In this document: positions 4,651-10,834 of the stretch, in pieces
Layout of the letters: each line of letters begins with the position of its first letter
Position numbering within the stretch: position 1 is the stretch's first letter
Source of the DNA: Taenia hydatigena
Taxonomy: Eukaryota > Platyhelminthes > Cestoda > Cyclophyllidea > Taeniidae
Reading direction: 5' to 3'
NCBI GenBank assembly: GCA_036345935.2
Contig: JADWOT020000001.1
Coordinates: 21,881,187-21,945,186 of the forward strand
DNA: 64,000 nucleotides
The notes under the pieces: model-generated
Told to the model about the DNA's origin: nothing
Database searches by the model: none
The model's input: only the letters and a program-made list of their open reading frames with translations
Position numbers and translations under genes: made by a program

Positions 4651-7600
4651 ATGAGTGAGAAGGTCGCCGAACCTTCACGGCGTTCTACGTACGTACTGAT
4701 CGCCACAATGTTAGTGGGTCTCATCTTGTTCATCATATTATTCGTACTCTACGATACCAGTTTGCATCCTCCTACTAAAGTAAGTCACCATCGTCGAAAA
4801 AACCTGGGATATGTTAATCCAGAAATTTTATCACAATGAAATGGTTTGATAATTGTAAACTGTAAGCTTATTAAAACACAATAGAAATTGATCAGAATTG
4901 CAGGGATTGACAACTACACTTAATAAACTTGGTCAGTTTCCAGACGCCGACGACCATATTAAAATTCCGAATGTCCACGTAATTCCCTCGTCAAAATGCA
5001 ATACAGATTTCTTTAGCAAATGCACTGGAAAATTGTAGTTTTTTGCTGAGCATAGTGTTTTGCTTAATTCGCCTAATCATTATTGTGATTGTCACATCGT
5101 TGTTGCGTCATATTGCACGCAGTATTTGCTCGTGATTGATTGTGGACTGAGTGCGTCCAAGTTCTCTCTCTTCGAATACACTGACTGGTATGCCCGCTCA
5201 AACGCTTGGGTTCGTCAGCGCAGCTACTTCAAAATTAGTAAGCCTCACTTCAGTGCATTGAGTCAAGCAAATCAAACAGCGTTCCACTTTCATTTTGCCA
5301 TACTTCTTTTAGGTCCTGGAATCTCCTCCTTCGTCGACAATCGCACAGCTGGCGCTGAGGCGATTTTGCGGGCGGCTAACTCGGTAATTACTAGTGGAGT
5401 TCCACCAAATTGCCAGAAGGGCACCCGCGTCTTCCTTGGGGCTGTAGCAGGCGTTCGGATGTTGGAGTAAGCGATTCCAACTCCCAGATGCACTTCATGC
5501 AACTAGAATGCAGAATAAGGAATGTTTCTTGCACATTGTAGTGTACTAACTTAAGTGTATTACCGGCATTTTCCATGACCTTAGCTGTATTTTTCATCTA
5601 AAATGACACATCCGACTAACAAAGACCATAAAGTAGCATTTGTGCACTTGTAGAAAGACAAATGAAGAGAAGGCGCGGGCGTTGATGGAGGCGGTGAGGG
5701 ATGCGCTGGCAGGATCGGCGTTGGAAGGGGTAGTGGTGAGCAAGATGGAGGATGTGGGAGTGGTGAGTGGTGCAGACCAGGGCTTCTACGCCTGGTTGGC
5801 AGTCAATTACCTGAGGGGAAAATTTGGAGAGGTGAGTGATCTTTCTACTATGCAAAAATTTGCCATTGATCCATGCGACTCGCAACACTCACTGCCCAAA
5901 CCTGCATTCCGTATTTGTGCAACTAACTATCATACGTCCATACGAATATCCATTCGTACTATTAAACACAGACAAACGACCATTGCTGAAAAGTCGGCAT
6001 CGTTGAGGCTCAGCACACCGGTGACTGAAGCTTACGTAGTACGTGAGCTTAAAACCCACCCTAGGCAGGTGTAGCCACCCATAAATACGACTAATACACC
6101 TAAATGGAAAGAAGTTTGCGTTTTTCAAAGCTCTCTCGTGTGTGTAACTTGGCACCCTCTTTTGAATGCAGCACCTCTGACTGGTGTATGCTCTACATAG
6201 CTGCGTTTTACCCCTCAAGATTTTATCTCTTTCGCTGTCTCAATCGTGCACCCTGACTCACACCCCTATTCGAGTGTTGTAATTTACTCTGCTCCGCAGA
6301 CCTCCTCGTTAATGAGATTGAACGTACCTTGGAGTGTAATGCGTTCACCATTAGCATGAACTTGTCAGCATCAATGTCAATGGTAGTCTATCAAGCTGAT
6401 ATAGTAAAAGACAAGGCATCAACGTCAATAGAAATAATTAGTCAACTACTGACTTATGCCATAACAGGGTCTGTTAGCATTGGCCAGAATGATGCACCTC
6501 GTTCACCAAGCATCCATCTGCCCATTATTCACGCAGTACTAACTCTATGCTTATACAACCCACAAAACAACTTTGGTCAACCTAGTTTAGCTCCACACAT
6601 CAGAGTTACATCCATAATGATACTCACCACTTCCTGTTCCGCTGTTCCACTTACGCACTCCGCAATTCACATCTACTAACATTTCCAGGCTTAACCCATT
6701 CGCCCAACCACGAATTCCACGTGTTGAAAAATAAGCACCATGTCTGACGAATTAAACATGATGAAGGACACACTCGCTATTGACTGATGTGGGGATGTAT
6801 TGAAAGTAATCGCAAGGTTTTGAATTGCTTGTGATTCTGCAATATCCTATGTAGGAGGGTTCGGATTCCACGTACGATCCCTCGTCAATGCTCGGTGCGC
6901 TGAATTTGGGCGGTGCAAGTACCCAGATAACCTTCGTACCACCAACCAAAGGCATGGTGAACAAAATGGCATTTGGACACAACTACAATCTCTACAGTCA
7001 GAGCCACCTGTGCTATGGGGTCGCTACAATACGAGCGCGCTATCTGGCTCACCTAACTCAGGGCGCGGATCCGCAGGTGAGTGGTGGTGATGATAGACGA
7101 CCTACTAATTGAATATCAGTAAGGGTTGTAACAGTGTCGAAGTGGAGTAAATGAAGGAAGGATTAAGCGTGCAGGGAGATACCAGTCAACTGGCGGATGC
7201 CATCAGGGCGGCATGCGCGTCCCGTATTTGGAATATTGCAGAGAAAAAAAAGATGAGACCATGCTGCGTATCACATCGGAGTGGCTTAACATTTTTTATG
7301 CAAATTATGAGTGCGTAGGACTGTAGCGCCATGGTAGCGAAAGACTAACTGGGGACCGCATTGTGGATATTGTAGGAGCCAGTGGTGAGTCCGTGTCACC
7401 CGAGCGGATTGATTATGGAAGTGGCCTCTGATGATATTTTCCAAGCACCATGCGTGGTATCCACTGGAGAGAACATAATGGGACCTCCTATTACCAAACC
7501 ATCGGTGAGAAAGACGCTTCCTTTTACAATGAATTTACTTCAATTTGCAAAACTTGTTTGAGAGAGTCTAGTTACTTTAATACTTTGATATAATACCATC

Positions 7601-10600: not shown

Positions 10601-10834
10601 TGCTAACACGGTTTTGCTTATGACGTTGTCACTTATCCCGTTCTGTGTCCTCAGGCCCTTGGAACGGTAGCCAGCTGGTCTACCGGCTATGCTCTTGATG
10701 CAACCGCTCGTATTCCCTCGACAGCACCTGCTATTCGGATGAATACAGTGGGCCTTGTTGTCGGCGTCGCCATTACTCTCGACGTCTTCGTGATAAGCCT
10801 GTTTCTTCTCCTTACGAAGTGCTGCAATGACTAA
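4651..10834 (+). CDS. Ecto-NTPDase (CD39/apyrase family), probable pseudoenzyme, 10 exons
   Basis: Exons: 4651-4779, 5123-5237, 5313-5466, 5654-5831, 6855-7076, 7376-7504, 7964-8092, 8512-8631, 9166-9291, 10655-10834. All introns are GT-AG and the phases agree, giving 493 aa plus stop, the usual NTPDase1-3 length. TM helices lie at about residues 13-34 and 465-487, so the body should be extracellular. Family enzymes hydrolyse extracellular ATP/ADP. Visible motifs: ACR1 DCGLSAS (49-55), ACR2 FLGAVAGVRML (122-132), ACR3 ADQGFYAW (173-180), ACR4 LNLGGASTQI (208-217); ACR5 is degenerate (LRGDFAAIHKLWEIV, about 347-361). Against the family, ACR1 has Leu for Ser, ACR3 has Gln175 for the catalytic Glu and ACR4 has Asn209 for Asp. 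Ectodomain cysteines (SHLCYG, SPCHPSG, DKCGQ, ESCGRQW, DKCLQGW) sit where human CD39 has its own. Start chosen because it opens the TM exon. The fold is probably kept but hydrolysis lost or altered; this is inference. Confidence 0.9.

What the first reader, a model, noticed from the sequence alone, without database searches (positions are those of the whole stretch)
4651..10834. Intact ecto-NTPDase gene with a dismantled active site
All ten exons splice in frame to 493 aa with both membrane anchors, and the cysteines line up with the CD39 disulfide framework. Yet the catalytic Glu of ACR3 (Glu174 in human NTPDase1, Glu165 in rat NTPDase2) is Gln175, the ACR4 Asp is Asn209, ACR1 has Leu in the phosphate-loop Ser position, and ACR5 is not recognisable. 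Family knowledge says the ACR3 Glu is the general base. A retained fold with lost catalysis suggests a surface pseudoenzyme, perhaps a nucleotide-binding decoy or host-interaction protein. That role is inference.
Basis: partly seen in the sequence, partly recalled or inferred. Interest (0 to 1): 0.78.

Follow-up and report, generated by a model that had tools for sequence, protein, structure and literature searches.

The report
Tapeworm dead-enzyme surface protein family
This tapeworm gene is an intact member of an expanded gene family, seen here only in Taenia and Echinococcus, whose proteins keep the shape of an ATP-destroying surface enzyme but appear to have lost its cutting machinery and much of its ATP-holding pocket, so they probably do a different job.

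Summary
The gene is real: ten exons (4651-10834, +) splice in frame to 493 aa and match GDA1/CD39 at E 4.8e-49. Gln175, Asn209 and Leu52 are as stated. ACR5, called unrecognisable, is present (Trp442, Gly445, Tyr446). The gene is not a lone oddity. It belongs to an expanded clade seen here only in Taeniidae (15 of 15 rows one clade, 100/100), while an intact enzyme persists on another contig (C6). Clade-wide changes: ACR1 Ser to Leu (13 of 14 rows with a letter), ACR2 Thr to Val/Ala (14 of 14), ACR4 Asp lost (11 of 13). Glu-to-Gln is a later, patchy step (4 of 15). Purine-contact residues changed too: Phe365 to Glu in 13 of 13, Tyr412 to Lys/Arg in 13 of 13. The extra conservation of the apyrase regions is largely gone (67 vs 62% elsewhere; canonical 84 vs 55%), yet the protein is under purifying selection (W-branch omega 0.36; neutrality rejected, p=2.5e-5). 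Best reading: a maintained pseudoenzyme family, probably not a nucleotide decoy. Activity, expression and surface location are untested.

The parts
4651..4779 (+). exon 1: start codon, cytoplasmic tail, first membrane anchor (aa 1-43)
   Evidence: hydrophobicity
5123..5237 (+). exon 2: ACR1, Asp49-Cys50-Gly51-Leu52
5313..5466 (+). exon 3: ACR2, Val126, Arg130
5654..5831 (+). exon 4: ACR3, Gln175 (CAG 5778-5780)
6855..7076 (+). exon 5: ACR4, Asn209 (AAT 6903-6905), Gly211, Ser214, Gln216
7376..7504 (+). exon 6: the most conserved exon in the family (72% mean pairwise identity) and the least conserved of exons 2-10 in canonical rows (47%)
7964..8092 (+). exon 7
8512..8631 (+). exon 8: Glu359 at the CD39 Phe365 site
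9166..9291 (+). exon 9: Lys400 and Lys404 at the CD39 Tyr408 and Tyr412 sites; Cys405
10655..10834 (+). exon 10: ACR5 (Trp442, Gly445, Tyr446), second membrane anchor, stop codon
104..281 (-). relic of a family exon 5 in two pieces
   Evidence: E 3e-7
14710..14790 (+). weak exon-6-like relic with a stop
   Evidence: E 0.004
20044..20196 (-). relic of a family exon 3, with stops
   Evidence: E 6e-8
41562..42301 (+). relic copy: exon 2 and exon 4 pieces, with a stop in the exon 2 piece
   Evidence: E 6e-8 and 2e-10
50258..50323 (-). weak exon-6-like match, may be chance
   Evidence: E 0.01
56938..60002 (+). broken family copy: pieces of exons 4, 5, 8 and 9, with in-frame stops in the exon 4 and exon 8 pieces
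   Evidence: E 8e-15, 8e-23, 5e-8, 1e-15
62424..62540 (+). relic of a family exon 5
   Evidence: E 3e-6

Best explanation
The gene encodes a two-anchor NTPDase-fold protein that most likely no longer works as a nucleotidase, one member of an expanded pseudoenzyme clade seen here only in taeniid tapeworms. SHOWN here: a lineage set apart from canonical genes by a long branch (1.6 changes per site, midpoint root) shares the loss of the phosphate-loop Ser and of the ACR2 Thr in Taenia and Echinococcus rows alike, and nearly all rows have lost the ACR4 Asp; the residue at the purine-stacking CD39 Phe365 site is Glu and the one at the Tyr412 site is Lys/Arg; an intact canonical gene remains elsewhere in the same genome; the copies found lie on one contig; the protein is under purifying selection. 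INFERRED: the ectodomain faces outwards at the tegument or in secretory membranes; the old nucleotide cleft is closed or unused (Glu359 with Lys404 may form a salt bridge in the former base pocket); the protein acts by binding a protein partner through another surface, perhaps that of exon 6. Gln175 is a late local step in an already damaged site.
For: Clade: 15 of 15 family rows one side of a branch, 100/100, in 100% of 200 bootstrap trees. Losses: ACR1 Ser to Leu in 13 of 14 rows with a letter (the other is the annotated start Met of P0005), ACR2 Thr to Val/Ala 14 of 14, ACR4 Asp lost 11 of 13; the ten canonical cestode rows keep Ser, Thr, Glu and Asp wherever covered. Phe365 site Glu in 13 of 13 (canonical aromatic in 9 of 10; the partial T. 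solium model reads Lys); Tyr408 site non-aromatic in 13 of 13 and Tyr412 site Lys/Arg in 13 of 13, P0001 dropped from both because its model ends out of register. ACR conservation: canonical (8 rows) 84 vs 55% elsewhere, 0 of 300 random block sets as high; family (12 rows) 67 vs 62%, 52 of 300 as high. Selection: W-B1 dN/dS 0.32 (0.26-0.42) at dS 0.65; W-branch omega 0.36, omega=1 rejected p=2.5e-5 on 449 codons; neutral drift of 0.325 changes per site gave on average 10.2 stops and no open frame in 500 runs. 12 of 13 models (W included) have no stop from exon 2 on. Fold. Canonical gene.
Against: Activity, ligand binding, expression and location were not measured; no RNA data. W still keeps Asp49, Gly51, Arg130, Gly176, Gly211, Gly212, Ser214, Gln216 and Trp442, and among six W/B-type rows the ACRs remain more conserved than the rest (79 vs 67%), so weak or altered activity there is not excluded. 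P0005 and P0007 keep the ACR4 Asp. The Tyr408 site also varies in canonical rows (Asn in Spirometra) and in a fluke (Ser). The exon-6 signal is only suggestive (31 of 300 random blocks as high). Recent duplicate pairs do not by themselves reject neutrality (B1-B3 0.57, 0.30-1.21; C1a-C1b 0.66, 0.28-1.60; C2c-C2d 0.86, 0.37-3.35). The exon finder penalised stops, which favours open models. The fold is that of T. solium P0001, not of the window protein.
Confidence: 0.8

Rival explanations
1. A nucleotide-binding decoy or sensor: catalysis is lost but ATP or ADP is still bound at the surface.
For: W keeps Gly211, Gly212, Ser214 and Gln216 of ACR4, and Asp49 and Arg130.
Against: Phosphate-loop Ser to Leu and ACR2 Thr to Val; the Phe365 site is Glu and the Tyr412 site Lys/Arg in 13 of 13 readable rows each; other family members carry acidic residues in the ACR4 glycine loop.
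Confidence: 0.07
2. Still an enzyme with weak or changed specificity; Gln175 tolerated, another group supplying the base.
For: Purifying selection; part of the site is kept in W; ACRs somewhat more conserved than the rest in W/B-type rows (79 vs 67%).
Against: Three further active-site positions changed; in the family as a whole the ACRs hardly exceed the rest; that mutating CD39 Glu174 abolishes activity is recalled, not looked up.
Confidence: 0.1
3. A gene in decay, intact by recency; the array is a graveyard of an old duplication.
For: Broken copies and relics in the same window; B2 incomplete; some recent duplicate pairs do not reject omega=1.
Against: W-branch omega 0.36, neutrality rejected p=2.5e-5; none of 500 neutral runs stays open at 0.325 changes per site; relatives in T. 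solium and T. asiatica.
Confidence: 0.03
4. Partner subunit: the pseudoenzyme assembles with the canonical C6 NTPDase through the membrane anchors and regulates it or its placement.
For: Both anchors kept, intact enzyme in the same genome. That CD39 forms oligomers through its anchors is recalled.
Against: Exon 10, which holds the C-terminal anchor, is the least conserved exon in the family (34%) but not in canonical rows (62%).
Confidence: 0.1

Closest known systems
Ecto-NTPDase 1/2 (CD39, ENTPD1/ENTPD2), GDA1/CD39 family
   Different: 26% identical to cat CD39; catalytic Glu, ACR4 Asp, phosphate-loop Ser, ACR2 Thr and purine-contact residues changed.
Canonical cestode ecto-NTPDase (C6 gene here; T. 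crassiceps P0026, E. granulosus P0027)
   Same: Intron positions and phases (read by eye) and ACR5 wording.
   Different: 32% identical to W; ACR residues intact; 85-87% identical to its counterparts in T. solium, T. crassiceps and E. granulosus, against 70-72% for W and its Taenia relatives.
Schistosoma ATPDase1/2
   Same: Same family; a tegument apyrase that degrades host nucleotides (review PMC6269126, passages read).
   Different: The schistosome rows aligned keep DAGST, ATAGMR, EEG and DLGGAST.
ENTPD5/mt-PCPH, reported as a catalytically inactive NTPDase
   Same: A family member reported as inactive (PMC3829800, search listing only).
   Different: A truncated mutant form of an enzyme (PMC4090452, search listing only), not a natural multi-copy lineage.

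Membership tests
GDA1/CD39 family (PF01150), by descent | profile match above the curated cut-off | tested here: met
   167.6 bits vs 24.9, residues 42-455
GDA1/CD39 family (PF01150), by descent | NTPDase fold | tested here: met
catalytically competent ecto-NTPDase | catalytic Glu in ACR3 | tested here: not met
   Gln175
catalytically competent ecto-NTPDase | ACR1 Asp and phosphate-loop Ser | tested here: not met
   Asp49 kept, Ser replaced by Leu52
catalytically competent ecto-NTPDase | ACR2 Thr | tested here: not met
   Val126
catalytically competent ecto-NTPDase | ACR4 Asp with glycine loop and Ser | tested here: not met
   Asn209; Gly211, Gly212 and Ser214 kept
catalytically competent ecto-NTPDase | ACR5 Trp, Gly, Tyr | tested here: met
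   Trp442, Gly445, Tyr446
catalytically competent ecto-NTPDase | aromatic purine-contact residues (CD39 Phe365, Tyr408, Tyr412) | tested here: not met
   Glu359, Lys400, Lys404; the Tyr408 site also varies in some canonical rows
catalytically competent ecto-NTPDase | NTP/NDP hydrolysis | not testable with these tools
   bench assay needed
ecto-NTPDase topology (NTPDase1-3, 8) | N- and C-terminal membrane anchors | tested here: met
   Kyte-Doolittle mean over 1.6 at 19-residue window starts 10-22 and 463-474
taeniid pseudoenzyme clade (named here) | inside the clade; Cys-Gly-Leu in ACR1, Val/Ala in ACR2, Glu at the Phe365 site | tested here: met

The most novel reading that the evidence does not exclude
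Before Taenia and Echinococcus parted, taeniid tapeworms turned a surface ATP-destroying enzyme into a non-enzymatic receptor-like or ligand-like protein family: constraint moved from the catalytic regions to a new surface centred on exon 6, and the family then multiplied and diversified (subfamilies W, B and C) at the host-parasite interface.
Probability: 0.3. Interest if true: 0.78.

Novelty: new variant of a known kind. Interest (0 to 1): 0.6.

Why it matters
Public records name these proteins 'ectonucleoside triphosphate diphosphohydrolase' or 'apyrase'. If the family is dead as an enzyme, those names mislead purinergic and vaccine work on Taenia and Echinococcus, and the intact gene (C6 here) is the one to study for ATP removal. 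A conserved, multi-copy, membrane-anchored protein family seen here only in taeniids would be a candidate host-interface protein and a clean natural case for asking what a retired NTPDase fold can do. The ten paper searches made here listed no paper describing it; only open-licence papers are held.

Tried and rejected
Rejected: sequencing or assembly error (T. solium P0001 shares Gln and Asn); simple decay; Gln175 as the defining lesion (11 of 15 rows keep Glu; at least 3 E/Q changes on the tree); loss of ACR5 (present). Paper searches listed nothing on this tapeworm family. Papers looked into: PMC12489842 and PMC5803232 gave no occurrence of the residue names asked for; PMC8630654 has no cestode, Taenia or Echinococcus hit; PMC10824444 passages did not help; PMC12085659 passages name a public T. 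solium RNA-seq set that I could not query; PMC3083126 is not held. Human CD39 numbers for Phe365, Tyr408 and Tyr412 were carried over through cat CD39 with a recalled human sequence; the constant offset labels the Phe365 column as 364, and one search uses the corrected column. Rows dropped: P0006, P0007 and P0020 from the ACR conservation test; P0001 from the Tyr408 and Tyr412 counts; B2 (exons 1-2 not found, a stop in its exon 3 stretch) from all paralog counts; P0021-P0025 (fragments) from the tree. P0004 has an odd insert near the Tyr408 site, so its letter there is unsure. Exon 1 was modelled only for W. The species was not identified.

Full report
The window is G000:C1:21881187-21945186 of a 306-Mb genome in 1354 contigs. 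The canonical NTPDase of this genome (C6) is 85-87% identical to those of Taenia solium, T. crassiceps and Echinococcus granulosus, so the organism is a taeniid tapeworm; the species was not determined.

The gene. Ten exons at 4651-10834 (+) splice to 493 aa without a stop. Pfam GDA1_CD39 matches residues 42-455 at E 4.8e-49; the best solved relative is rat NTPDase2 (4cd3, E 3.2e-39, residues 39-465). Hydrophobic anchors lie near both ends, and three N-glycosylation sequons are present. Against the alignment the site reads Asp49-Cys50-Gly51-Leu52 (ACR1), Val126 and Arg130 (ACR2), Gln175 (ACR3), Asn209-Leu-Gly-Gly-Ala-Ser214-Thr-Gln216 (ACR4), Trp442, Gly445 and Tyr446 (ACR5). ACR5 is therefore present, contrary to the finding.

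The family. A profile search of 5.8 billion proteins with seven tapeworm relatives returned 12 hits, 12 of 12 from Taenia solium, T. asiatica, E. multilocularis or E. granulosus (only the 7990 candidates sharing most words were scored). In the own genome, the window protein gave 88 exon matches, all on contig C1, chiefly at 21.68-22.02 Mb with others at 9.16 and 18.93-18.97 Mb and isolated exon-9-like matches elsewhere (lower bounds). From 20 fetched stretches I modelled 13 copies including W. Twelve have no stop from exon 2 on; eight of these run from exon 2 to exon 10, three are cut by the fetched stretch (C1c, C1d, C1e) and in C2b exons 9-10 were not found. One (B2) is incomplete with a stop and was left out. 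The exon finder penalised stops, which favours open models. Exon 1 was modelled for W alone. The intact canonical gene lies on C6; two further GDA1/CD39 genes lie on C3 and C9.

Tree. A maximum-likelihood tree of 32 proteins puts the 15 family rows on one side of a branch (100/100; 100% of 200 bootstrap trees), with 1.6 changes per column on the stem under a midpoint root. Inside, W goes near T. solium P0001 and T. asiatica P0004; B1 and B3 with P0002 and P0006; C-type copies with P0005, P0007 and the Echinococcus rows. The Echinococcus rows sit inside the family, so it predates the Taenia-Echinococcus split.

What was lost, and when. ACR1 Ser is Leu in 13 of 14 family rows with a letter (the other is the annotated start Met of P0005); ACR2 Thr is Val or Ala in 14 of 14; ACR4 Asp is Asn, Thr or Ser in 11 of 13, with Asp kept in P0005 and P0007, where the two glycines are Asp. 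Four fragments not on the tree (P0021, P0022, P0023, P0025) have Glu or Asn at the ACR4 Asp. ACR3 Glu is Gln in 4 of 15 (W, P0001, P0002, P0006) and Glu in 11; at least 3 changes on the tree. The ten canonical cestode rows, from this genome and six named genera, keep Ser, Thr, Glu and Asp wherever covered. So the clade was changed first in ACR1 and ACR2 and mostly in ACR4; Gln175 is a later touch.

The purine pocket. In a docked model of human CD39 the purine is held between Phe365 and Tyr408 with a hydrogen bond to Tyr412 (PMC13181798, passages read). The Phe365 site is Glu in 13 of 13 readable family rows and aromatic in 9 of 10 canonical cestode rows (the partial T. solium model reads Lys). 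Without P0001, whose model ends out of register, the Tyr408 site is non-aromatic in 13 of 13 and the Tyr412 site Lys or Arg in 13 of 13; canonical rows are aromatic in 8 of 9 and 9 of 9. The Phe365 site is fixed by the exon 8 border, the other two by Cys405. Against over-reading: Opisthorchis has Ser and Spirometra Asn at the Tyr408 site, and Torpedo Asn at the Tyr412 site. This speaks against a nucleotide decoy. That Glu359 and Lys404 form a salt bridge is inference; I had no coordinates.

Constraint. In eight canonical cestode rows the five ACRs are 84% identical against 55% elsewhere (0 of 300 random block sets as high); in 12 family rows 67% against 62% (52 of 300). Against my reading, six W/B-type rows alone still show 79 against 67%. 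The exon conserved best in the family is exon 6 (72%), the least conserved of exons 2-10 in canonical rows (47%); a random-block check gives 31 of 300 as high, so it is only suggestive.

Selection. W against B1 gives dN/dS 0.32 (bootstrap 0.26-0.42) at dS 0.65. In a four-gene codon model (W, B1, C1a, C2a; 449 codons) omega on the W branch is 0.36; forcing it to 1 costs 8.9 log units (p=2.5e-5); it does not differ from the other branches (p=0.33). Very recent pairs are compatible with omega of 1. Under neutral drift of 0.325 changes per site the frame gains 10.2 stops on average and stayed open in 0 of 500 runs.

Verdict. Loss of nucleotidase activity is strongly suggested by sequence and untested at the bench. 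Surface exposure follows from the topology of the family. A partner-binding role, possibly at the host interface, is inference.

Noticed in passing
window 28700-29230: Long low-complexity stretch that translates as runs of Ser, Pro or Leu in several frames.
   Followed up: no
window 34027-34524 (+): Open frame with a PDZ domain (PF00595, E 5.6e-9).
   Followed up: no
window 51947-53622 (+): Pieces of an arginyl-tRNA-protein transferase gene: ATE_N E 1.1e-9 and ATE_C E 8.8e-9.
   Followed up: no
L017/L018 and L020/L021 (C1:21.70-21.75 Mb): C2-type copies in opposed pairs with very little divergence (C2a-C2b dS 0 over 356 codons, C2c-C2d dS 0.015): young inverted duplications or an assembly effect.
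   Followed up: partly
L012 and L013 (C1:9.16 and 18.93 Mb): C1c and C1d are almost identical (one synonymous difference in 396 codons) though nearly 10 Mb apart: recent long-range duplication or assembly duplication.
   Followed up: no
L009 (C3:19.497 Mb): Another GDA1/CD39 gene whose ACR3 reads FEALFGW, with Ala after the Glu where canonical rows have Gly.
   Followed up: no
P0064: A protein labelled Chaetura pelagica (annelid) groups tightly with chicken CD39; probably vertebrate contamination in that record.
   Followed up: no
C1:12.19, 12.91, 14.77 and 17.53 Mb: Isolated exon-9-like matches of the family far from the clusters, each flagged with a stop within the matched stretch.
   Followed up: no
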